DNA of 64,000 bases from Epilithonimonas vandammei (GTDB lineage: Bacteria; Bacteroidota; Bacteroidia; Flavobacteriales; Weeksellaceae). Below the pieces are notes generated by a model. That model did no database searches. It was given only the letters and a program-made list of their open reading frames with translations, and was not told the DNA's origin. The stretch lies in assembly GCF_003860525.1 (NCBI RefSeq), contig NZ_CP034161.1, positions 186,001 to 250,000 on the forward strand, read 5' to 3'. A program made the position numbers and the translations under genes. Positions 10,841-27,134 of the stretch are shown here, in pieces. Position 1 is the first letter of the stretch. The number at the start of each line of letters is the position of its first letter.

Positions 10841-11378
10841 ATGCCAAGGTTTCCTTATCAATTCTTCACCGAGTTTATTGTAAGACTCCGCTGTTATCAT
10901 ATAAAGAGTTCTTAAATAATTTCATGGAAAACACAAATGATGAAAACATTCATAAACTCTTAAATGATGATACTTTTAGGGAAGCGATTTATCTGGCTTC
11001 TCCGTTTTTGATGCTGGAGATAGAAAAAAGTTTTTCACAGAAAGATTTTTCACAAATCCCAGGGAAACTTAAAAACACAATTCTAAAATATATGAGCCGA
11101 ATCACTACTCGATCTACACCTTTTGGTTTGTTTGCAAGTGTGGGGATAGTACACTTCAGTTCCATAGAAACGGATAATAGAAATCTTCAATCTTCAAAAA
11201 CATGTATGCGGGATACGAAAATCGATATGCATTTTCTGGTTAATCTAGCGCATCATTTTTCTGAAATTCCTGAGATAATACAACATCTCAAATTTTTCCT
11301 AATAATAGTATTTACAAAGTTGGCAATAAAATACGTTTTGTAGAATATGAACTTCTGAGCAGCGTTTGTTTGAAATGA
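10841..11378 (+). pseudogene. lanB remnant (lantibiotic dehydratase N-terminal part, frameshifted and truncated)
   Basis: The ATG at 10841 opens MPRFPYQFFTEFIVR, equivalent to the FEKFVLRTPLLS start of the intact LanB at 80-2308. One base is missing near 10885; after it the frame continues TPLLSYKEFLNNF, then MENTNDENIHKLLND...FREAIYLASPF and TRSTPFGLFASVG. A second shift occurs near 11300, where LKFF(P)NNSIYKVGNKIRFVEYELL aligns with LKFYPNSSIYKIGDKLRYVEY of the intact protein. Homology ends at about 11360, leaving about 170 of 740 residues. The longest uninterrupted piece is 139 codons (10924-11343). It is 10 bp downstream of the prolyl oligopeptidase gene and not functional as a dehydratase. 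Confidence 0.88.
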
Positions 11379-11874: not shown

Positions 11875-12942
11875 CTAGTATGACTTTCGAATTAGTGAAA
11901 TCTGGTACCAGTAAAAGAAGGCTTCCGGGTTTCCTTTTTTTAACTTATTGAGTTTGGAATCAAACTCCTGATCAATCACTAGCTCCTTTATACTTTCTAT
12001 ACCTTGATATTTTTCAAGTTTTGTTAATTTATATTTTAGTACAGTTGCTAAATAGGCAGCTTTCGCAGCATCGGTAATGGCTCTATCTAAATGATAAGTT
12101 TCTGAGAATATAAATCTTTTCACCTGCGTAATACCTAATGAAAGCGCCTTAAAATCTCCCTTTCCTTTTTCCCCTCGGGAGCAGATATGAAGTGCTGTAT
12201 CGTAAATATCATCGAGAACTCCATTTTCATCAGTTTCGCAATTTCTATAACCGATCTCTGTTTTGGCAAAAATATCAAAAGTCCGCCCAATAATACCTAC
12301 GTCAGTAACAGGTTCTAAAAGACTTCCAATATCAAAAAGCTGTTTCATGATCTCCATCGTCCTGGAATCGCCACTTTTTTCATACGGTATCCCGGTAGTA
12401 TTAGGTGCAAACGCCGTAAGTTTATCTCCTAAAATGTCTTCATGGCATGGGATATTAACTTTTATAGGCTCGCCATCCTGTTTAATAAAACTTGAATTTA
12501 TTGGAAAGTTTATAATTTTTGCGTAGTGCGGCTCTTCAAAGAGAATATCCAGCAACACATAGTCTTCAGTCATATTAGACATATGAACAGGTGTATAAAA
12601 AAACTTGTAATGTGCTTTTTCAATGTCGCCTGATGTTTGCCGGTGTTGTTCCTCAAACCTTGTAAATCCTTGTTCAGATAAAAATCCTTGGAACTTCTCT
12701 TCCAGGTCTTGCTTTGGGTTACTGATAATTACATCAATATCAATGGACAGACGTTTAGTACTGTTCATCAATAGCATAAGGGCTGTTCCACCTTTAAAAA
12801 CAAATTGAACATCAGCCTTTACGAGACCTTCAAGGAGAAGTAATGCTCTAATTACTTTTTCTATAAGAATTTTGTCTGCCTTGTTATTCTTCGCAGAAAC
12901 ACTGTTCAGCCATTCAGTAGTAAGACTGTCTTTTGATATCAT
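11875..12942 (-). CDS. AbiEii-type nucleotidyltransferase toxin
   Basis: 355-residue protein of the AbiEii/AbiGii family, the toxin of type IV toxin-antitoxin and abortive-infection systems. The nucleotidyltransferase signature is present: GGTAL at 51-55 and DID at 68-70. Later family blocks are HEDILGDKLTAFAP and MKQLFDIGSLL. It is predicted to transfer nucleotides to an RNA target and to stop growth when released. It starts 21 bp after the antitoxin stop on the same strand. After the stop, another frame reads LGERLAVILSYCRTFEFTKD, so the C-terminus may have been shortened by a frameshift; this is uncertain. Confidence 0.87.
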   Translation of the reverse strand: MISKDSLTTEWLNSVSAKNNKADKILIEKVIRALLLLEGLVKADVQFVFKGGTALMLLMNSTKRLSIDIDVIISNPKQDLEEKFQGFLSEQGFTRFEEQHRQTSGDIEKAHYKFFYTPVHMSNMTEDYVLLDILFEEPHYAKIINFPINSSFIKQDGEPIKVNIPCHEDILGDKLTAFAPNTTGIPYEKSGDSRTMEIMKQLFDIGSLLEPVTDVGIIGRTFDIFAKTEIGYRNCETDENGVLDDIYDTALHICSRGEKGKGDFKALSLGITQVKRFIFSETYHLDRAITDAAKAAYLATVLKYKLTKLEKYQGIESIKELVIDQEFDSKLNKLKKGNPEAFFYWYQISLIRKSY

Positions 12943-12963
12943 AATAATTAGAATTTAGAATGG

Positions 12964-13710
12964 TTATTGTTTTAGAAATTTAGAATCGTATATATATTTA
13001 ATAAGGTCATGTTTTCTGCCCTTTCGGTCAGCATATCGTAAAAGCCTGTTTTCATTCACAATGTATTTTTGAAATGCATTAACAAAGATACTTCTGAGTT
13101 CACTGCCTGCGAGAAAAGTAAATTCAGGATCACAAAATATATCTACCAGCATTTTTTCGAGGCTAATGAGTGGTAAACCTTTTTCTTCACTCAAAGGACT
13201 TTCTGTTGTCAAATACCTAACTATAATGGGAGAACGGAAGTCCGGAAGAAGGTCATTTATCAGCATCTCTGAAGGACGTAGAAACACACCGCTGAAATTA
13301 TTTTTGAGCTGATAATAAACAGATTCTGTCACATCACGTTCAACATCTACCAGAACGAATGGATATGCACTTAAATGCTGGGCAAATTCGTTTAATAAAT
13401 CTGAGTTCCAGGCACAAAAAGAAACATCAGGAAAATTTTTCCGGATGAATGTGCTGATTTTTTTTGACCTGGAAGATAATTCCGGATGATACTGCTTAGC
13501 ATCGCCGAGTTGAAACAATCCTCTCCCTACTCTATGCAGTACTGACGATCTAACAAGGTCATATACTCTCCACCTGATGGTTGTATCTGGAATCTCAGAG
13601 TCATCTTTTCTAAAATAAGCGCGCAAATCATCTAAGGAAAGCTCTGATTGATTCCTAAAATATTCCTGTAATGCTTTTTTATCTTTCTCTTTTTTTAGCA
13701 TGTAAAACAT
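12964..13710 (-). CDS. AbiEi-type antitoxin (winged-helix transcriptional regulator)
   Basis: 248-residue protein with an N-terminal winged-helix region (DLRAYFRKDDSEIPDTTIRWRVYDLV, then HRVGRGLFQLG), typical of AbiEi-like antitoxins. The remainder (about 85-248) matches the usual C-terminal domain of the larger Bacteroidetes antitoxins (DUF6577-like, from memory). AbiEi proteins neutralise AbiEii and repress their own promoter by binding inverted repeats. Two such 41-bp repeats lie upstream, at 8 and 163 bp from the start. ATGs at 13710 and 13701 are both possible. It is the first gene of the two-gene operon. Confidence 0.82.
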   Translation of the reverse strand: MFYMLKKEKDKKALQEYFRNQSELSLDDLRAYFRKDDSEIPDTTIRWRVYDLVRSSVLHRVGRGLFQLGDAKQYHPELSSRSKKISTFIRKNFPDVSFCAWNSDLLNEFAQHLSAYPFVLVDVERDVTESVYYQLKNNFSGVFLRPSEMLINDLLPDFRSPIIVRYLTTESPLSEEKGLPLISLEKMLVDIFCDPEFTFLAGSELRSIFVNAFQKYIVNENRLLRYADRKGRKHDLIKYIYDSKFLKQ

Positions 13711-15740: not shown

Positions 15741-15792
15741 AGCTATCTTTAGAATCTCAAGTCAGAAAACTGGTATTTTCACATAACACGAG
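15741..15792 (+). repeat. Imperfect direct repeat, left copy
   Basis: About 52 bp starting AGCTATC and ending CACGAG; it matches 16648-16700 and includes the shared 16-mer TCAGAAAACTGGTAWT. The two copies bracket the two minus-strand genes at 15803-16544. Confidence 0.6.
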
Positions 15793-16196: not shown

Positions 16197-16544
16197 TCAA
16201 ATCCTTTGAAGAATTTCGTCTTCGAATCTACTTACATCACTTTCAGAAAGCTTATCATAAATTTCAGCAAAAGAAGTCATTGTATAACCCATTGATTCAA
16301 CAATAAGAACTATTGTTGCCATTGTTGATCTCTTCTTTCCGCTGAAAGCACTATTTACAGTGGCTTTGGTAAGTTGTGAATTAGAGTTCGCAACAATTTT
16401 ATCATAGCTATTGACTATCTCTAAACTGCTACCAGCTTTCGCTGAGGAATTCTTATTGTTACTAAGCATTTTGCGCAAAGTAATCGCAGTTTTTACAATT
16501 ATAATTTTTTCACTTTCCTTAATCATATATGCAATTAAGTACAT
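16197..16544 (-). CDS. Small repressor-like DNA-binding protein
   Basis: 115 residues from the ATG at 16544. The frame is open upstream to a TTG at 16607, but that would translate through a perfect palindrome. The middle part (NSQLTKATVNSAFSGKKRST followed by MATIVLIVESMGYTMTSF) has the spacing of a Cro/C1-type HTH. The perfect 38-bp palindrome starting 6 bp upstream is a natural autoregulatory operator. An alternative start is the ATG at 16526. It lies in a segment bracketed by direct repeats. Confidence 0.6.
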   Translation of the reverse strand: MYLIAYMIKESEKIIIVKTAITLRKMLSNNKNSSAKAGSSLEIVNSYDKIVANSNSQLTKATVNSAFSGKKRSTMATIVLIVESMGYTMTSFAEIYDKLSESDVSRFEDEILQRI

Positions 16545-16549
16545 AATGG

Positions 16550-16587
16550 AAAATATTTTGGTATAGTTTTGTATACCAAAATATTTT
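16550..16587. promoter_or_regulatory. Perfect 16-bp inverted repeat (operator)
   Basis: AAAATATTTTGGTATA (16550-16565) and TATACCAAAATATTTT (16572-16587) are exact reverse complements around GTTTTG. It sits immediately upstream of the small repressor gene (start 16544) and is probably bound by it. Confidence 0.75.
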
Positions 16588-16647
16588 TTCTTAGCTTTGT
16601 AAAACAAGTTACTTAATTGTAATTTTGCGAAACTTCAAAATATTAAA

Positions 16648-16700
16648 AGCTATTCGCTTAGAATCTCGTATCAGAAAACTGGTAATTTAATGCTCACGAG
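16648..16700 (+). repeat. Imperfect direct repeat, right copy
   Basis: Matches 15741-15792. It also provides the 5' strands of the outer stems of the structured element that follows. Confidence 0.6.
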
Positions 16701-16801
16701 TGGATAAGTTGAAAGCTCACGTCCGCGGCGTGGGCTCTCTTATCTGTGAGCAAGGTATACCAGTACCCCTGATACAGTAAGTAGAGTTCCACGCCGTTTT
16801 T
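16668..16801 (+). ncRNA. Candidate structured RNA with nested stems and switch-like terminator
   Basis: Five stems nest in order: GTATCAG (16668-74) with CTGATAC (16769-75); ACTGGTA (16678-84) with TACCAGT (16758-64); GCTCAC (16692-97) with GTGAGC (16746-51); GATAAG (16703-08) with CTTATC (16739-44); GCTCACG (16715-21) with CGTGGGC (16729-35). The last stem has one U-G wobble that is valid only on the plus strand. An alternative 8-bp pairing, CGGCGTGG (16726-33) with CCACGCCG (16789-96), would break the innermost stem and is followed by TTTTT, as in an attenuator. More hairpins follow at 16781-16827, 16875-16894 and 16899-16922. The 16608-16940 gap holds no other gene. Family is unknown. Confidence 0.6.
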
Positions 16802-16940
16802 ATTCTAATGCTGTCCGCCTGCTCTACATTTTTCTAAGCTGCTTTTACTATAAAGTATAAGATTAGGCAGGATACAATGGCAGCGGATCCATTGGAGCTT
16901 TACAGCTCACACTGAGAGTAAATTTCATTCATATTAATTT

Positions 16941-17561
16941 TTGACCTGTAGCGGCAGGGAGTTTTCTGCACTGGTAAGGCTTCCTCCGATACGGTCTTTA
17001 AAATCAAAAACTAAAAGACAGCTATTGAAAAACAAAAAAATAGATTTTGAGTCACGCTTCTGGTCTGGAAGTAAAACGAATTCAAGGATAAAACTCATTG
17101 AGAAATTCTTTCAGTTCAACGACCTTGTTACCGCCAAAGAATTACTGAACCAGATTATGATTCATTCGGGCAATAAGAAATCTGTAATTGCGGAAGATTC
17201 CTCGGCGATATTTCATTTTCATCAGGCTTTACGGTCTTTAGTTCGCGCCTGCTTTCTCATATTGCAGAAAGAAAAAAGATGGAAAGTTAATGAACCACAG
17301 GAGGGCTGCTCGCCATTATCACAGGGCTCACTTTCTGATGGAGAATTTGTTAACCCAGTACGGGTATTTCAAAAGGCTTTTGGTGAGTACTCCATCAAAG
17401 ATTTTGATTACTATATTTCGGTAGCGGTCTATTTTTCATTAGGAACTTACACTCACGCTGCTGAAAGCAAAATCTTTGTACCATACCTGCATTTATGCAA
17501 AATGCTTGATGCATCGTACCTTATCTTAGAAAGAGGAATCCAAAAGAAGAATATCCACTAA
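16941..17561 (+). CDS. Hypothetical protein upstream of the SusC operon
   Basis: Open frame of up to 206 codons without an early ATG. Possible starts are TTG at 16941 or TTG at 17025 (reading LKNKKIDFESRFWSG). The protein is helical and basic with a hydrophobic C-terminal third (DYYISVAVYFSLGTYTHAAE). I recognise no family. It lies between the structured element and the SusC leader. It could be a true gene with a rare start codon or the 3' part of a decayed one. Confidence 0.5.
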   Translation: MTCSGREFSALVRLPPIRSLKSKTKRQLLKNKKIDFESRFWSGSKTNSRIKLIEKFFQFNDLVTAKELLNQIMIHSGNKKSVIAEDSSAIFHFHQALRSLVRACFLILQKEKRWKVNEPQEGCSPLSQGSLSDGEFVNPVRVFQKAFGEYSIKDFDYYISVAVYFSLGTYTHAAESKIFVPYLHLCKMLDASYLILERGIQKKNIH

Positions 17562-17683: not shown

Positions 17684-20600
17684 ATGAAAAAAAACTTTTG
17701 CAGGCTGGGCCATCTTCAATGGATGGCTTTCAGCAGCCTGCTCGTCTCGGGAATGGCAATAGGACAAATAAGAACCATTTCGGGCACAGTCACACAAAAC
17801 GGGCTTCCAATAGGCAATGTGTCCATTTTTCAGGAAGGGAAAAATGAAGTTACCATTACCAATTCATCCGGAAAATATCAGATACAAGTCGCAGGTGAAA
17901 ACCCTGTCCTTATCTTCAGGCATCCTGATTACTCTGAACAAAGATCAAAAGTCGGTGTAGAATCGATTATAAATATTGTTCTAAATAACCGTGAAAAGGA
18001 AATCGAAGAAGTCGTTTTAAATGCTGGATATTACAAGGTCAGGGAAAGGGAAAGCACAGGAAGCATTTCCAAACTTGCAGCGAAAGATATCGAAAACCAG
18101 CCTGTCAATAATGTGCTGTCAGCACTACAAGGCAGAATGACGGGCGTAAGTATCACACAAAATTCAGGCGTCGCCGGTGGTGGCTTTGATATTAAGATTC
18201 GGGGAAGAAACAGCCTGCGAAGCTATTCAACGACAGGTTATGACGGCAATAAGCCACTATACATTGTCGATGGCGTTCCTCTGCCATTGGTCAATGATTT
18301 CAATAGTGGAATGACGGCCAATATACTGCCATATAATGAAACCAACCCGCTGAATTCAATCAATCCCGATGATATTGAGTCGCTTGAGGTCCTTAAAGAT
18401 GCCGATGCCACTGCCATTTATGGAAGCAAGGGAGCCAACGGCGTTATTTTAATCACCACAAAGAGGGGCAAAAAAGAAAAAACAGAGGTCAACTTAAGAA
18501 CAAGTTTTGGATTGGGACAGATGACCAACCTGCCAAAAATGATGAATTTAGAAGAATACACGGCAATGCGAAAGCTGGCTTTTGCTAATGACGGTGTAGC
18601 AGTGCCTTCCAATGCCTACGACATCAACGGCGTTTGGAACCCAACAAAAACAACGGATTGGCAAAAATATTTTGTAGGAAATACAGCGGAGATTTCAGAT
18701 GTACAGATTGGTGTATCAGGCGGAAGCGGCAATACACAATTCTCGGTTTCCGGTGGTCACAATGAAGAAACAACAGTTTTTCCGGGGAGCTACCGCTATA
18801 AGAGAAATAACTTGGGAGTCAGTATCAACCATACCAGCGCAGATCGAAAATTCAAGATCGGTTTTAATGGCACTGCCGCATTGCAGGATAATGTCCTTCC
18901 ACCGACTGACTTTAATATTGTTTATCCGGTTTTAGCACCTAATGCCCCGGATCTGTACACGCCTAGTGGAATGATCAATTGGGAAAACAATACGTTTACC
19001 AATCCTATGGGACCTGCAACGCAGATTTTTTCAGTACAAACCAAGAGTTTAAATGCAAATCTAACATCAAGCTATCAGTTTGGCAGCGGATTCAGTGCTA
19101 ACCTGAATAACGGTTATAGTACTTACAACAGTTATGAACAAAAGATTTTTCCAAAAACAACCTATAACCCGTCCAGCAATATCGGCAGCAGCAGTTCTTC
19201 TCTCAGAAAAGCCCAGAAATTAAATGAGAGCTGGATTCTTGAGCCGCAGCTGAACTATGAAAAACGATTGGAGAAACATCAGTTCTCCGCATTGTTAGGG
19301 GCTTCATTTCAAGAGCAGAAATCCGATAATATCGTTATTCTCGGAAGAAATTTTCCTTCAGATGATCTATTGACCAATATGGCAGCCGCAGCTTCCATTA
19401 CTATTCCTAGCGCAAGTGAATCATTATACCGCTACCAGGCCGTTTACGCCAGGCTCAATTACGGCTATAACAAAAGGTATTTTTTAAATTTAACAGGCCG
19501 CCGTGACGGATCCAGCAGATTTGGTTCAGAAAGAAGGTATGCTAATTTCGGAGCTGTTGGGGCTGCGTGGTTATTTTCAGAAGAGAAACTATTCAAAGAG
19601 CGATCGTGGTTAAGTTTCGGAAAACTGAGAACCAGCTATGGAATAGCAGGGAATGACCAGATTGGAGACTATCAGTATTACGACACGTATCAGTCCACCG
19701 GCGGATCGTATGGCGGTAATTCCGGCTTGATCCCACAACGGCTTTACAACAAAAACTTCGGATGGGAGCAGACCCGTAAGTTTGAGGCTGCTTTGGAAGT
19801 CGGACTATTTAAGGAGCGGCTTAATCTGAACATAGGCTATTATCACAACACCAGCTCCAACCAGCTTGTCGGTATCCCGATGCCTGCAACAGTAGGATTC
19901 AGCAGTATTCAGGCAAATCTGGACGCTACGGTAAGGAATCGTGGTCTGGAAGTGTCTTTGGAATCAGTCCCCATTAAAACAGAACATTGGAAGTGGACGA
20001 CCAGTCTCAATTTTACTTTGCCTGAGAATAAACTCATGAAGTTCCCCAACCTTGAAAAGTCGACGTACGCCAACAGATTTGAAATTGGAAAATCCATTTC
20101 CCTGGTAAAACTCTATCAATATACGGGCATCGATCCCGTCACAGGTCTATATACATTTTACGACACCAATCAGGATGGGAAGATTAATACTGCCGACCGT
20201 ACTGTGAGCAAAGAGATCAAAGAATACTGGTATGGCGGACTACAGAACAGTATTCAATATAAAAACTGGAGTTTCGATCTGCTTTTGCAGTTTATTAGTC
20301 AGAGTCAGTATAATGTGAAATCAATGTACGGCAATATTGGTTATATGTCGAATATGCCGGCAATATTCACCGATTACTGGACACCTGAAAATCCTGATGC
20401 CGAATTTCAAAAGCCTAGTGCAGGCTACAACACAGCTGCAGCAACAGCGAGTTCCCTTTTTATCCTTAGTGATGCTACCGTTTCTGATTCGTTCACTGTA
20501 AGAGTAAAAAATGCAACCTTGAGCTACAGCATACCATCAAACGGCAATGGCAAACTGAAAGCTAAGCTTTTTATCAGCGGGCAGAATCTCTTTGTTTTTT

Positions 20601-20692
20601 CCACATACAAAGCAGGCAATCCTGAGTTCATGCTGGCAGGATACAGTAGCCCGCTTCGGGTAGTCAGTTTTGGTCTTTCATTAACCTATTAA
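17684..20692 (+). CDS. SusC/RagA-family TonB-linked outer membrane transporter
   Basis: 1002-residue protein. After an N-terminal signal (to about residue 27, MAIGQ) comes a CarboxypepD_reg-like domain (RTISGTVTQNGLPIGNVSI; about 30-110), a TonB plug (about 115-260; NVLSALQGRMTGVSI, IKIRGRNSL, LYIVDGVPL, ATAIYGSKGANGVILITTKRG) and a long beta-barrel ending in Phe-Gly-Leu-Ser-Leu-Thr-Tyr. With SusD it forms an energy-dependent importer for oligomers, often glycans or peptides. Because an S9 peptidase, not a glycosidase, follows, peptides are the more likely substrate. It is the first gene of a SusC-SusD-peptidase operon. Confidence 0.93.
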   Translation: MKKNFCRLGHLQWMAFSSLLVSGMAIGQIRTISGTVTQNGLPIGNVSIFQEGKNEVTITNSSGKYQIQVAGENPVLIFRHPDYSEQRSKVGVESIINIVLNNREKEIEEVVLNAGYYKVRERESTGSISKLAAKDIENQPVNNVLSALQGRMTGVSITQNSGVAGGGFDIKIRGRNSLRSYSTTGYDGNKPLYIVDGVPLPLVNDFNSGMTANILPYNETNPLNSINPDDIESLEVLKDADATAIYGSKGANGVILITTKRGKKEKTEVNLRTSFGLGQMTNLPKMMNLEEYTAMRKLAFANDGVAVPSNAYDINGVWNPTKTTDWQKYFVGNTAEISDVQIGVSGGSGNTQFSVSGGHNEETTVFPGSYRYKRNNLGVSINHTSADRKFKIGFNGTAALQDNVLPPTDFNIVYPVLAPNAPDLYTPSGMINWENNTFTNPMGPATQIFSVQTKSLNANLTSSYQFGSGFSANLNNGYSTYNSYEQKIFPKTTYNPSSNIGSSSSSLRKAQKLNESWILEPQLNYEKRLEKHQFSALLGASFQEQKSDNIVILGRNFPSDDLLTNMAAAASITIPSASESLYRYQAVYARLNYGYNKRYFLNLTGRRDGSSRFGSERRYANFGAVGAAWLFSEEKLFKERSWLSFGKLRTSYGIAGNDQIGDYQYYDTYQSTGGSYGGNSGLIPQRLYNKNFGWEQTRKFEAALEVGLFKERLNLNIGYYHNTSSNQLVGIPMPATVGFSSIQANLDATVRNRGLEVSLESVPIKTEHWKWTTSLNFTLPENKLMKFPNLEKSTYANRFEIGKSISLVKLYQYTGIDPVTGLYTFYDTNQDGKINTADRTVSKEIKEYWYGGLQNSIQYKNWSFDLLLQFISQSQYNVKSMYGNIGYMSNMPAIFTDYWTPENPDAEFQKPSAGYNTAAATASSLFILSDATVSDSFTVRVKNATLSYSIPSNGNGKLKAKLFISGQNLFVFSTYKAGNPEFMLAGYSSPLRVVSFGLSLTY

Positions 20693-20703
20693 AGTTTATA
20701 ATT

Positions 20704-22101
20704 ATGAAAAATACAATATTAAAACATATCATATCATTAAGTTTTTTCATCTTGTTCCTTCTGATCAATAACAGCTGTGACCGCTTTACGGAAGTAGGGT
20801 TACCGAAAAATCAGATAACAAGAGAGGTCGTCTTCAAAGATGATCAGTTAGCTAAATCTGCTATGGCAGGCGTTTACCGTTCATTAGACGATCAGGGATT
20901 TTTATCAGGGTCTTCGTCAGGTGCCCAGCTTGTGATGGCAGCCTATGTAGATGAGCTACAGGCCTATGGTGCAGCTGCAACTGACGCTGCCATCTTTTAC
21001 CAACTGAGCCATGTGGCTACTACTGATAAGATCAAGAATCTATGGACAATCACATACACTCAAATTTATAACACCAATGCTGTTATTGAAGGAGTTGAAA
21101 ATTCGGAAAGCCTTAGCTTAGAAGTTAAAAACAGATTAAAAGGGGAAGGTCTTTTTCTTAGGGCATTACTGCATCTTTACTTAACCCAGACATTCGGCTC
21201 AGTCCCTTACGTCACCTCTACAAACTATCAGGTCAACCAGAGCATTGGTAAGATCAGTACCAGTCAGGTCTATGCACAGTGTAAAACAGATCTTGAGACG
21301 GCAATACCGCTTTTACCAACAACTTTAGCTGCAGGAAACAGGGTATATCCGACAAAAATGGCAGCCTATACCGTATTGGCAAGAATAGCCTATTATGAAA
21401 AAAATTGGGATTCAGCCATTCAGTATTCGAACAATGTCATTGGAGATGCCCAATATAAAATTGAATCTGATTTAAATAAAGTATTCCTAAAAGACAGCTC
21501 AGGAAGTATATGGCATCTGTTACCTTTTGGTGCTACGTACAATGCTTATCAGGGGAATGTATTTATCCTGAACACAGCGCCGCCGACAAATGTTGCGCTA
21601 CGACAGGATTTTGTAGATGAATTTGAGAATGGCGACCAAAGAAAAACCGCTTGGATAGGGCAAAAAACAGATGCGCAAAATAAAATTTATTATTATCCAT
21701 ATAAATATAAACAGTATTATACCAGTCCGACGTCTTTAGAATATTCGGTCATTCTCAGAGTAGAAGAATTGTATTTAATCAGAGCAGAAGCTTACATTAA
21801 GAAAGGCCAATATGACCTGGGAATTGCGGATATTAATAAGATAAGAACCCGTGCGGGCTTAGCACCACTAGCAAACAGCAGTGATCAAAATACATTGATA
21901 GCTGCTTTAATCCAAGAAAGAAGGTCAGAACTATTTACTGAGTTTGGGCACCGTCTTTATGACTTAAGGCATTATGATCTTGCAGATATCAGAATGCTAT
22001 CAAAGAAAGGTGGATGGAAACCGCACTTTAAATTACTGCCTCTGCCTGCGACCGAACTGCTGCTAAATCCTAACTTAAATCCGCAAAATGAAGGTTACTA
22101 G
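20704..22101 (+). CDS. SusD/RagB-family outer membrane lipoprotein
   Basis: 465 residues. The lipobox is LINNSC with Cys25, followed by DRFTEVGLPKNQITREVVF, typical for RagB/SusD. Central TPR-like helices and the C-terminal SusD block (YLIRAEAYIKKGQYDLGIAD, INKIRTRAGLAPL, LIQERRSELFTEFGHRLYDL) are intact. It caps the SusC barrel at the cell surface and binds the substrate. It starts 11 bp after susC and overlaps the following peptidase gene by 14 bp. Confidence 0.93.
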   Translation: MKNTILKHIISLSFFILFLLINNSCDRFTEVGLPKNQITREVVFKDDQLAKSAMAGVYRSLDDQGFLSGSSSGAQLVMAAYVDELQAYGAAATDAAIFYQLSHVATTDKIKNLWTITYTQIYNTNAVIEGVENSESLSLEVKNRLKGEGLFLRALLHLYLTQTFGSVPYVTSTNYQVNQSIGKISTSQVYAQCKTDLETAIPLLPTTLAAGNRVYPTKMAAYTVLARIAYYEKNWDSAIQYSNNVIGDAQYKIESDLNKVFLKDSSGSIWHLLPFGATYNAYQGNVFILNTAPPTNVALRQDFVDEFENGDQRKTAWIGQKTDAQNKIYYYPYKYKQYYTSPTSLEYSVILRVEELYLIRAEAYIKKGQYDLGIADINKIRTRAGLAPLANSSDQNTLIAALIQERRSELFTEFGHRLYDLRHYDLADIRMLSKKGGWKPHFKLLPLPATELLLNPNLNPQNEGY

Positions 22102-24592
22102 GTTACATATGCTGGCATTCCTCTTAGTTCATGGACTTTGCTTATCTCAGGATATTGACAGTTTAAACGCGGTTTACAAGCAATACTATGAAACAGCATT
22201 GCGGGCGAACAGCCCTAATGGTCGTTTCGTAATTCTAAATCACAGCAACACCTATGGTAAGAATGATTACGAATTGTTGGATGTCAAAAACGGCAAAGCT
22301 TCAATGCTTGGTAATTTTGATAAATTTCAATTTTTAAATAATAACCTACTGTTGATGCGAAATGATCTTCTTTGTCGATTCACAGATTTAAGAACCGGTC
22401 AATTCAGGGAAGTTTCAGGAAACTATTTAATTGAACCTGCGCAACAATCGGCTCAAGTGGTCCTTTTTAATACAAGTTTAAAAGAACTGCTATTAGCTTC
22501 TGTAGAAGGAAAAGTGTTGTGGAGAAAACAGGATGTAACGGTTTATCAACTTGATACAACCAACAATAACCTAATTTATATATCCGGCAATGACCTGGTT
22601 GTCATAAATCTAACAAACCATCGCTCTAAAACCTACAAGGTTGAGAGTGGTATCCAATGGATTTCTTCTAGTGGACAGCGAATCTATGCCGCCAATATCC
22701 AATCCAAGCAAATTAACCTATACACTGTTGACCTAGGATCAGAAAAGTTAACCGGACAGCTGATAGCGATGCCTGAAGGATTTGAATCAACCACTCGCTT
22801 AACCACGTATTTGGAGGTTCGGGAAAATGAACATTTCATATTTCCATTATATTTGAAAAGGAAGCTGGAGCGTAATGAAAATCCTGAATTGAAAATCACC
22901 TATTCCAACAAGAACGGCGAGGACAAAATGCCCTATTACCATTTAGGCATTTACAATCTTAACAAAGAACAGTGGGATTATCTGCCTGATATGAATGATG
23001 ATCTACCTGTTTATAAATTTTTAAACGATAGTGGCGACTTTATTGTGTATGATTTAGCGGATGATGTCGTGGAAGAGCAACAAAATAAAATTCTTGATTT
23101 GAAATTGTTTTTTGATTATGGTAATCATTCCTATGTATTATCCCAAAAAAGAATAGAAGAAGGCAACTATCTTTGGGATCGAGACACAAAACAATTTGTC
23201 TATTTTAATGATACGACATGGGTATCCCATAATATTAGTACTGGGAAGGAGGTTGATCTTATGCCTGCTAACACAAAGGGTTGGGCCAGCCGTGATAATA
23301 GTGGCTTGGCTAAAGCCCCTGCCACTAAACCTGTTAAAATCAAAGACAGATCTGCGATAATGATTTCCAACCAGTTTGATTATTTCATTGTCGACTTGAA
23401 AACCAGACAGACAAAACAGGTCACAATGGGGGAAGAAGCAAAATTGAAATATCAGCTCCTGTTATCAAAAGAGAACTACCCAAAATCATCTTGGAATATC
23501 AGAATGGGAGAAATAGATCTATCGAAGGATTTAATATTTAAGACGTTCAATAAGCTCACTTATGATTCAGGTGTTGCCAGGGTGACATATAAAAACAATA
23601 AAACAACATTTTACCGACAAGGTCATTACAGGGAGATAATACCTTATGACAACGGTTTTTTCTTAACATCGAATTTTGCTTTAGAGCCTTTTAAGCTGAC
23701 AACCTTCGAGAAAGGGAAATATCATACTGTTTATGAATCTCTAAAAAAAGAAAAGAAAGATTTTGAAGGTGCGAGATGTGAAATATTTCAATATAAAACC
23801 GATTTCGGGACTTCCAATGCAGCGCTCTTATTACCTATCAACTATGATCCAAATAAGAAATACCCTATGATTGTTAATATTTATGAAGAACTTTCGCACG
23901 ATGTATTGTTTTTCTTGCAGCCCTACGTTAATATTAGGATTGGGTTTAATTATATACATTATTTGATGAATGGTTATATAGTTCTATTACCAGATCTCCA
24001 GTATGAATTAGCAAATATTAAAAATAGTGTTATAATGTCTTTAGAGAAAAGCATCGATTCCGCAAAGTCGCTGGCATCAGTAGATGAAAAAAATATCGGA
24101 GTGATAGGACTGTCGTACGGGGGATATGAGACAGGTCTTGCACTGACCAATTCGAGCTACTTTAAGACAGGCGTGGCAGGTGTTATGGTGTCGGATTTGG
24201 TTTCTAATGCTCTTAGTCAATCTGAATTTATTACAAAGCCTAATTATATGAGGGTTGAAAATCAGCAGATGAGGATGAACAATAATGTCCTGGATCATTG
24301 GAATCTTTATTTGGAAAATTCCCCCATTTACCATGTGAAAAATATTGAAGTTCCTGTATTGCTCTGGACAGGGTTGAAAGATAAAAACGTATCCCCTGCT
24401 CAGGCAAGAATGTTTTTCCAAGGAATTAAAAGACAGAAGAAAAAAGCTGTGCTGCTGGAGTATATCAATGAATCCCACAATGTTTTCAAACCTTTGAACC
24501 AGGTGGACCTTAATATTAAAATCTGGCAATGGTTCGATTACTACCTGAAAAATAAAAAGCCAGCAGACTGGATTCGTCCACTAGTGCAATGA
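22088..24592 (+). CDS. S9-family serine peptidase (prolyl oligopeptidase superfamily)
   Basis: 834 residues with a signal-like start (RLHMLAFLLVHGLCLSQ), a beta-propeller region and a C-terminal alpha/beta-hydrolase domain. Catalytic residues visible are Ser in GLSYGGYE, Asp in GLKDKNVSP and His in NESHNVF. It is likely periplasmic and cuts peptides brought in by SusC/SusD. The ATG at 22088 overlaps susD; an ATG at 22109 is also possible. The stop codon TGA (24590-24592) lies within the terminal inverted repeat of the IS1182-type element that follows, so the original C-terminus may have been slightly longer. Confidence 0.85.
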   Translation: MKVTRLHMLAFLLVHGLCLSQDIDSLNAVYKQYYETALRANSPNGRFVILNHSNTYGKNDYELLDVKNGKASMLGNFDKFQFLNNNLLLMRNDLLCRFTDLRTGQFREVSGNYLIEPAQQSAQVVLFNTSLKELLLASVEGKVLWRKQDVTVYQLDTTNNNLIYISGNDLVVINLTNHRSKTYKVESGIQWISSSGQRIYAANIQSKQINLYTVDLGSEKLTGQLIAMPEGFESTTRLTTYLEVRENEHFIFPLYLKRKLERNENPELKITYSNKNGEDKMPYYHLGIYNLNKEQWDYLPDMNDDLPVYKFLNDSGDFIVYDLADDVVEEQQNKILDLKLFFDYGNHSYVLSQKRIEEGNYLWDRDTKQFVYFNDTTWVSHNISTGKEVDLMPANTKGWASRDNSGLAKAPATKPVKIKDRSAIMISNQFDYFIVDLKTRQTKQVTMGEEAKLKYQLLLSKENYPKSSWNIRMGEIDLSKDLIFKTFNKLTYDSGVARVTYKNNKTTFYRQGHYREIIPYDNGFFLTSNFALEPFKLTTFEKGKYHTVYESLKKEKKDFEGARCEIFQYKTDFGTSNAALLLPINYDPNKKYPMIVNIYEELSHDVLFFLQPYVNIRIGFNYIHYLMNGYIVLLPDLQYELANIKNSVIMSLEKSIDSAKSLASVDEKNIGVIGLSYGGYETGLALTNSSYFKTGVAGVMVSDLVSNALSQSEFITKPNYMRVENQQMRMNNNVLDHWNLYLENSPIYHVKNIEVPVLLWTGLKDKNVSPAQARMFFQGIKRQKKKAVLLEYINESHNVFKPLNQVDLNIKIWQWFDYYLKNKKPADWIRPLVQ

Positions 24593-27058: not shown

Positions 27059-27134
27059 TGTAATAAAATTTGATGTTATGCCTACTCTAAATCAACAGGT
27101 TTTCGGCATTCCCTGTTCTGTTGGCCAACAGATA

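What the first reader, a model, noticed from the sequence alone, without database searches (positions are those of the whole stretch)
16668..16922. Highly structured RNA-like element with an attenuator-like alternative fold
Five nested stems of 6-7 bp close in perfect order over 108 nt. The only wobble fits the plus strand. An 8-bp alternative pairing followed by TTTTT would replace the innermost stem, as in riboswitches and attenuators. Three more hairpins follow up to the next ORF, which has no ATG start. I do not recognise the class.
Basis: seen in the sequence. Interest (0 to 1): 0.75.

Follow-up and report, generated by a model that had tools for sequence, protein, structure and literature searches.

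The report
Bacteroidota RNA switch before surface genes
The DNA just upstream of a nutrient-uptake operon likely encodes a compact, knotted leader RNA whose sequence family recurs in many genomes of the phylum Bacteroidota and matches no RNA family in Rfam; evolution has kept two predicted folds that exclude each other, so it would act as an on/off switch for the gene that follows, in response to a signal still unknown.

Summary
Window 16645-16803 lies where the 5' leader of a SusC/SusD operon would be. Covariance models find it in 22 of 23 genomes of the genus and 179 of 246 sampled from the family, and in 106 of 395 sampled from the class, with 1-8 copies each. No Rfam 15 family matches. All five stems covary: 30 of 31 pairs change on both sides. 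Two crossing helices also covary, one of them less clearly. The 3' strands of P5 and P4 can instead pair with the stretch before a U-run, giving a long terminator-like hairpin. Over 138 copies this rival helix is far better with a copy's own tail than with swapped tails (-22.8 against -17.4 +/- 0.2 kcal/mol), and the two folds are nearly equal in energy (median difference -0.4). Promoter motifs lie just upstream and the next gene is on the same strand in 129 of 137 copies: SusC, type IX-secreted proteins, lipoproteins, response regulators, methylases. Best reading: a new riboswitch-like transcription attenuator, ligand unknown. Nothing was tested at the bench.

The parts
16596..16627 (+). Predicted Bacteroidota-type promoter: TTTG (16596-16599), 20-nt spacer, TAATTTTG (16620-16627); transcription predicted to start near 16634
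   Evidence: Sequence. TAnnTTTG in the 150 nt upstream of 114 of 138 copies (18.6 expected from order-1 random sequence); TTG-N17-21-TAnnTTTG in 73 of 138 (1.7 expected). What the motif means is recalled.
16645..16803 (+). The predicted RNA leader: structured core plus alternative hairpin and U-run
   Evidence: R2 match 16652-16808, 158 bits, the only match with E<=1 on either strand of the 64-kb window
16647..16659 (+). P0, small 5' hairpin AAGC/GCTT
   Evidence: fold; a hairpin of similar shape seen by eye in other copies; covariation not counted
16663..16702 (+). PK1 crossing helix (16663-16667 with 16698-16702; in the window itself about 3-5 bp, CTCGT/ACGAG)
   Evidence: 4 of 5 pairs change on both sides among 96 distinct rows, 87.4% of cells paired. 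Three of five measures exceed all 500 shuffles; the count of both-side pairs (159/500) and of pair types (54/500) do not stand out
16668..16775 (+). P1 (16668-16674 / 16769-16775)
   Evidence: All 6 modelled pairs (16669-16674 / 16769-16774) change on both sides
16679..16763 (+). P2 (16679-16684 / 16758-16763), whose 3' strand lies in the HP loop; flanked by near-invariant A and U bases
   Evidence: 99.3% of cells paired, 6 of 6 pairs change on both sides; conserved unpaired columns
16692..16751 (+). P3 (16692-16697 / 16746-16751)
   Evidence: 6 of 6 pairs change on both sides
16703..16744 (+). P4 (16703-16708 / 16739-16744)
   Evidence: 5 of 6 pairs change on both sides
16715..16735 (+). P5 (16715-16721 / 16729-16735)
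   Evidence: 7 of 7 pairs change on both sides
16754..16767 (+). HP hairpin GGTA/TACC enclosing the P2 3' strand, which makes P2 a second pseudoknot
   Evidence: 3 of 4 pairs change on both sides, 98.2% of cells paired; shuffles reach the pair count 3/500 and the other measures 0/500
16725..16797 (+). Alternative (terminator-like) hairpin: 5' arm 16725-16748 (3' strands of P5 and P4 and the joint between them), 3' arm 16773-16797, HP inside its loop
   Evidence: Minimum-energy fold of 16636-16798 and on to 16808, -53.9 against -53.7 kcal/mol for the rod; at 16813 the rod is lowest again. Own-tail against swapped-tail test on 138 copies
16797..16801 (+). U-run closing the alternative hairpin
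   Evidence: TTTT within the 37-nt end stretch of 133 of 138 copies, 58.3 expected by shuffling that stretch
17025..17561 (+). First downstream ORF (178 aa from TTG 17025; function unknown)
   Evidence: 9 relatives found; 7 of 9 have the RNA upstream, L013 a weak remnant (18.9 bits, E 0.17), L012 none
17684..22101 (+). SusC (17684-20692) and SusD (20704-22101) genes, the likely regulated operon
   Evidence: Plug, TonB barrel, SusD_RagB and SusD-like_3 matches

Best explanation
This sequence family, found across the Bacteroidota, is predicted to be transcribed as an RNA leader in which a covarying double-pseudoknot fold and a covarying rival hairpin with a U-run share strands, so that it would work as a riboswitch-like transcription attenuator for the gene that follows. 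Inferred steps: RNA polymerase starts near 16634 and the rod P1-P5 with its pseudoknots folds first. The linker and tail (16776-16796) then emerge. The linker can pair with the P4 3' strand, the start of the tail with the free joint between P4 and P5, and the rest of the tail can displace the P5 5' strand. The resulting long hairpin plus U-run would stop transcription. A ligand or protein that stabilises the knotted rod would block this and let transcription run on (ON switch). Shown by computation here: both folds are conserved, share strands and have near-equal predicted energy; promoter motif and gene order fit a leader. Inferred: transcript, termination, signal and direction. The ligand is not identified.
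For: Covariation in the rod: A3, aligned by sequence only, 31 copies, 17 of 36 pairs (rod plus PK1) change on both sides, 0/500 shuffles; A4 30 of 31 pairs; A5 30 of 31; A6 29 of 31. Crossing helices. Rival helix: own tail -22.82 kcal/mol against -17.35 +/- 0.23 for tails permuted among 138 copies, best of 2000 permutations -18.18; linker part alone -5.44 against -3.76 +/- 0.12. Energies: median difference -0.4 kcal/mol, within 5 in 110 of 138; in the window the minimum-energy fold flips as the transcript reaches the U-run. U-run 133 of 138 and same-strand next ORF 129 of 137. Promoter motifs. ORF starts a median of 168 nt downstream, a tenth within 29 nt (131 copies with a downstream ORF), so in some copies there is little room for a second promoter. 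Rfam: no match.
Against: No transcript, termination or ligand data. Downstream genes are very diverse, unlike metabolite riboswitches tied to one pathway. The next ORF is on the other strand in 8 of 137 copies, and in 6 of 138 a mechanical ORF of 80 aa or more spans the RNA. Some copies have weak U-runs (L114, L133, L137, L139); in Chryseobacterium the run is often only GTTTT, and further conserved sequence follows before the gene. With more 3' sequence the window's rod becomes the lower fold again (16813). Vienna energies ignore pseudoknots, so the balance of states is approximate. PK1 does not stand out on two of five measures. In Chryseobacterium alone the 8-bp core varies little (mostly G-C to G-U); its support comes from the wider phylum. 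A4-A6 were fitted to the model's structure, which favours it. The RNA was not found in 67 of 246 family and 289 of 395 class genomes (strict filters).
Confidence: 0.75

Rival explanations
1. A free-standing small RNA of about 160 nt that ends at the U-run and acts in trans; the downstream gene has its own promoter.
For: Own promoter motif and U-run; SusC starts 200-700 nt downstream in many Flavobacteriales copies.
Against: Next ORF on the same strand in 129 of 137 copies; ORF starts only 16-60 nt after the RNA in many distant copies; the alternative hairpin would dismantle the very fold that is conserved.
Confidence: 0.12
2. An RNA that binds RNA polymerase or a Nus/RfaH-like factor and makes it resist terminators along the operon (processive antitermination, like put or EAR RNA), so gene diversity is expected.
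For: Very diverse downstream genes; long SusCD operon in the window; conserved pseudoknotted fold.
Against: A conserved, covarying terminator-like rival fold is not part of put or EAR RNAs as I recall them; the idea itself was not tested.
Confidence: 0.2
3. A protein-responsive leader (a sub-case of the best explanation): an RNA-binding protein, not a small molecule, selects the fold.
For: Same structural evidence; no metabolic theme among downstream genes.
Against: None direct. Near-invariant unpaired A and U bases fit a small-molecule pocket equally well.
Confidence: 0.25
4. A mobile or recombination element whose fold matters as DNA (integration site, attC-like) or a mark for a hotspot of defence cassettes.
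For: Defence-type genes behind the divergent HTH gene in several Flavobacteriales copies; copies on two IMG/VR contigs and one plasmid.
Against: Strand-specific promoter motif, gene order and U-run, G-U pairs accepted on one strand and two competing folds point to RNA. Many distant copies lack the divergent HTH gene.
Confidence: 0.05
5. Ribosome- or tRNA-dependent attenuation (leader peptide or T-box).
For: Terminator/antiterminator layout.
Against: Transcription is predicted to start only about 13 nt before P0; 49 of 97 copies have no ATG in the first 60 nt of the matched RNA and the commonest ATG position occurs in 27 of 97; no Rfam T-box match. GTG and TTG starts were not checked.
Confidence: 0.03

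Closest known systems
Transcription-terminating riboswitches (e.g. fluoride and ZTP types, whose terminators invade the aptamer by strand displacement; recalled)
   Same: Leader position, pseudoknotted conserved domain, mutually exclusive terminator hairpin with U-run, free joint usable as toehold
   Different: No Rfam match; precedes many unrelated gene types; ligand unknown
Second-messenger riboswitches (c-di-GMP-I/II, ydaO c-di-AMP; recalled)
   Same: Several copies per genome before surface, secreted and regulator genes
   Different: No Rfam match. GGDEF found in 1 of 23 and DAC in 0 of 23 genomes of the genus, while 22 of those 23 carry the RNA
put and EAR processive-antitermination RNAs (recalled)
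   Same: Compact structured RNA early in an operon, indifferent to gene type
   Different: Here a conserved terminator-like rival fold shares strands with the structured domain
Flavo-1, 6S-Flavo, Bacteroidales-1 and other Rfam motifs of Bacteroidetes (names recalled)
   Same: RNAs of the same phylum
   Different: No Rfam family matches the RNA; the only Rfam match in the window is DUF805b at 27079-27116
Structured 5' regions and Rfp RNAs of Flavobacterium psychrophilum (PMC9723704; passages seen)
   Same: That study reports 64 structured 5' transcribed regions, some conserved outside the species and without Rfam hits
   Different: The passages give no sequences and name other genes; its tables were not seen, so I cannot say whether a copy of this RNA is among them

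Membership tests
Riboswitch / riboswitch-like transcription attenuator | Lies in the 5' leader of the regulated gene, same strand | tested here: met
   By position only: same-strand next ORF 129 of 137; promoter motif upstream in 114 of 138. No transcript data
Riboswitch / riboswitch-like transcription attenuator | Conserved structured domain supported by covariation | tested here: met
Riboswitch / riboswitch-like transcription attenuator | Expression platform mutually exclusive with the structured domain | tested here: met
   Rival hairpin uses the 3' strands of P5 and P4: tail-swap test, fold flip, U-run 133 of 138. Actual termination not tested
Riboswitch / riboswitch-like transcription attenuator | Direct binding of a specific ligand that changes the fold | not testable with these tools
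   No ligand known; needs probing and in vitro transcription
Any of 4227 Rfam 15 families | Match at or above the gathering score | tested here: not met
   window; 8 other loci; permissive search of 541 bases gave two chance-level matches outside the RNA core
c-di-GMP or c-di-AMP riboswitch | Genome encodes the enzyme that makes the ligand | tested here: not met
   PF00990 in 1 of 23, PF02457 in 0 of 23 genomes of the genus; controls rang in 8 and 11 of 14 genomes
Leader-peptide attenuator | Conserved short ORF before the switch | tested here: not met
   49 of 97 copies have no ATG in the first 60 nt; other start codons not checked
Processive antitermination RNA (put, EAR) | Suppresses unrelated downstream terminators | not testable with these tools
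   Needs a reporter with a distant terminator
Integron attC site | Function as folded DNA; R/L boxes | not tested
   Set aside because the strand-specific evidence favours RNA

The most novel reading that the evidence does not exclude
A new and abundant class of riboswitch: a portable, double-pseudoknotted ON switch spread through the accessory genome of the Bacteroidota, which places nutrient receptors, type IX-secreted proteins, lipoproteins, DNA methylases, response regulators and even an RNA-guided sigma-factor module under one undiscovered intracellular signal.
Probability: 0.5. Interest if true: 0.92.

Novelty: new variant of a known kind. Interest (0 to 1): 0.8.

Why it matters
An RNA found in 179 of 246 sampled genomes of a family and 106 of 395 of a class, and missing from Rfam 15, implies a widespread signal that may have gone unlooked for in a phylum that is abundant in guts, soils and seas (general knowledge). 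Its two covarying folds of near-equal energy make the question directly testable with short RNAs in vitro, and its genes point to control of surface receptors and secretion, in Flavobacteriales often beside defence genes.

Tried and rejected
Known family: Rfam at gathering threshold and, for 541 bases, with permissive E-values gave nothing on the RNA. c-di-GMP and c-di-AMP as ligands: their synthases are nearly absent from the genus. Leader peptide: no conserved ATG. The alternative as an 8-bp helix only: the first test on 40 copies (own -14.8 against permuted -11.5 +/- 0.44, best -13.2) was extended to the longer hairpin seen. A single theme among downstream genes: 131 of 138 copies had a downstream ORF by my rule; 58 of these, from loci L001-L104, were not scanned, and of the other 73 I dropped 11 (5 further SusC-like, 6 short or doubtful). 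The 62 scanned matched 70 Pfam families, the commonest in 7 members, so SusC is under-counted. Defence genes as the general rule: seen in several Flavobacteriales copies, not in many distant ones (the listing was cut). A phage home: no blastn match in 50,697 phage records; two IMG/VR contigs. A specificity control on E. coli could not be run. What specificity evidence there is: the 64-kb window gives one match with E<=1, and 40 loci fetched because of a match, 275 kb, give 40 matches and no extra ones. Literature: six answered searches (listings with the start of abstracts only) and passages of PMC9723704 show nothing that I can recognise as this RNA; most subscription papers and bioRxiv are not held.

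Full report
What is there. Rfam 15 holds no match to it.

It is a family. BLAST of 16640-16940 finds two more, partial, matches in the same genome, and a slightly shorter query finds matches in 20 of 23 genomes of the genus. A covariance model from 31 copies (R1) matches 22 of 23 genomes of the genus and 179 of 246 sampled from the family, in 24 of 33 genera, with up to 8 copies per genome, and 51 of 395 sampled from the phylum, in 24 of 170 genera, including other orders and classes. A second model from 97 copies (R2) matches 106 of 395 sampled from the class, in 66 of 197 genera. These large searches used strict filters, so weak copies may be missed. On fetched sequence, 40 loci (275 kb) gave 40 matches and no extra ones, and the window gave one; a control in another phylum could not be run. 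The named relatives of the first downstream ORF are all Chryseobacterium, so the window is probably from that genus or a close one (inference).

The rod is an RNA fold. On A3, aligned without structure, 17 of 36 pairs (rod plus PK1) change on both sides; 0 of 500 shuffles reach the observed value on four of five measures and 1 of 500 on the fifth. On the wider sets 30 of 31, 30 of 31 and 29 of 31 pairs do so (A4, A5, A6), with 96-97% of cells paired against 34-50% when the partner is slid. These three alignments were fitted to the model, so A3 is the stricter test.

Two crossing helices. PK1 pairs the strand before P1 with the strand after P3: TCTCG/CGAGA becomes TCTTG/CAAGA or GTCCC/GGGAC. 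By three of five measures it exceeds all shuffles, by two it does not stand out. HP pairs GGYA with TRCC on either side of the P2 3' strand and covaries, so P2 is a pairing between the HP loop and the strand GAAAACUGGUAAUUUU, in which several A and U bases are at least 95% conserved. Such a compact core is what one expects of a sensing domain (inference).

The switch. The P5 3' strand can instead pair with a tail just before a U-run. In the window the minimum-energy fold changes from the rod to the long alternative hairpin as the transcript reaches 16798 (-53.9 against -53.7 kcal/mol) and back when it reaches 16813. This hairpin also uses the P4 3' strand, which pairs with the linker after P1 (GATAA, CAATAAG or CGGTAAG in different copies), and leaves HP in its loop. 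Over 138 copies (97 of A5 plus 41 of A6) the helix formed with a copy's own tail averages -22.82 kcal/mol; tails permuted among copies give -17.35 +/- 0.23 and never better than -18.18 in 2000 permutations. The linker part alone gives -5.44 against -3.76 +/- 0.12. The two states differ by a median of -0.4 kcal/mol and lie within 5 kcal/mol in 110 of 138. The permutation does not correct for relatedness, and the energies ignore pseudoknots. P5 and the alternative are thus both conserved and exclude each other, and the joint between P4 and P5 is free to act as a toehold (inference).

It looks like a leader. TAnnTTTG lies within 150 nt upstream in 114 of 138 copies (18.6 expected), and the full two-part motif in 73 (1.7 expected). 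TTTT is found in the 37-nt end stretch of 133 of 138 (58.3 expected by shuffling), and the nearest downstream ORF of 80 aa or more is on the same strand in 129 of 137, on the other in 8; in 6 of 138 an ORF spans the RNA. ORFs start a median of 168 nt downstream and a tenth within 29 nt. In the window, transcription would start near 16634, about 13 nt before P0.

What it precedes. In the window's genome: a SusC/SusD operon, a type IX-secreted protein, and a response-regulator-like protein below the Pfam cut-off. Among 62 downstream ORFs elsewhere (131 found; 58 of L001-L104 not scanned, 11 dropped): 7 with the type IX sorting domain, 5 SusC, 3 DNA methylases, 3 response regulators, 2 FecR, 2 RibD-like, and many others; several more look like lipoproteins by eye. 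In L031, L032 and L044 the RNA precedes a sigma-factor-like ORF and a second ORF; in L137, the same place as L032, these match ECF sigma factors and, below the cut-off, the TnpB/Cas12f families. No single metabolic theme appears, so the signal may be global or a protein. Two obvious second messengers are unlikely because their synthases are nearly absent from the genus.

Beside it. Of 135 copies with an upstream ORF, 76 have a divergent ORF of 60-200 aa within 260 nt, mostly in Flavobacteriales; 48 of the 75 that I scanned (L009 left out) match HTH_3. Behind it, among 36 proteins from loci picked by hand, are matches to reverse transcriptases of DRT systems, PDC-S06, SMODS, NACHT, AAA_13 and a cytosine methylase; one cysteine-desulfurase-type protein matches SspA/DndA but could be housekeeping. 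How many of the 36 match any defence model was not tallied. In the window there are AbiEi and AbiEii. Whether RNA and defence genes are linked in function or only share a hotspot is open.

Verdict. A new, widespread riboswitch-like transcription attenuator (confidence 0.75 for a cis-acting switch; about 0.5 for the boldest reading, a small-molecule riboswitch class). Supported by computation: fold, rival fold, conservation, position. Not shown: transcript, termination, ligand.

Noticed in passing
window 11875-13710 and 16197-16607; loci L006-L045, L125-L144: Upstream of the RNA in Flavobacteriales a small, often HTH-type gene diverges from it and is in several loci followed by anti-phage-type genes (AbiE in the window; DRT, SMODS, NACHT, AAA_13 and others elsewhere): perhaps a defence hotspot next to SusC loci. 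The window's own divergent ORF has no Pfam match.
   Followed up: partly
L137 5247-7155 (L031, L032, L044 by eye): ECF sigma factor followed by a 364-aa protein with sub-threshold TnpB/Cas12f matches, the pair preceded by this RNA; resembles reports, recalled only, of sigma factors paired with inactive Cas12f.
   Followed up: partly
window 16553-16584 and the same place in other Chryseobacterium-type loci: A palindrome whose sequence differs from locus to locus lies between the divergent gene and the RNA promoter; a second dyad (GTTAC..GTAAC) lies inside the promoter spacer in many copies (by eye).
   Followed up: no
window 16832-16930: In Chryseobacterium-type copies a second conserved stretch with hairpins (GTATC/GATAC; CAATNGG/CCNATTG with paired changes) follows the switch before the gene; role unknown.
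   Followed up: partly
window 17025-17561: Protein family of unknown function, 9 relatives in Chryseobacterium-named contigs, usually between the RNA and a SusC or TlpA-type operon; TTG start, ATG in three relatives.
   Followed up: partly
window 15749-15779: 31-nt stretch 87% identical to the 5' part of the RNA (16658-16688), possibly a remnant of another copy.
   Followed up: no
window 27079-27116 (-): DUF805b RNA motif, the only Rfam match in the window.
   Followed up: no
window 10924-11343 and 22088-24592: Short ORF matching the N-terminal part of lantibiotic dehydratase, apparently truncated, and an S9 peptidase with a sub-threshold match to lasso peptide isopeptidase behind SusCD.
   Followed up: no
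L204 4447-4602 and 4738-4897; L203 11170-11322: Copies of the RNA on two IMG/VR contigs, one with a second, weaker copy in tandem.
   Followed up: partly
G003 C7 285366-285836: The only GGDEF gene found in the 23 genomes of the genus lies about 1.5 kb from an RNA copy, on the side where the defence-type genes usually sit.
   Followed up: no
L165-L167 (G884): Three RNA copies lie 228-311 nt from contig starts and share upstream sequence, which suggests repeats next to the RNA.
   Followed up: no
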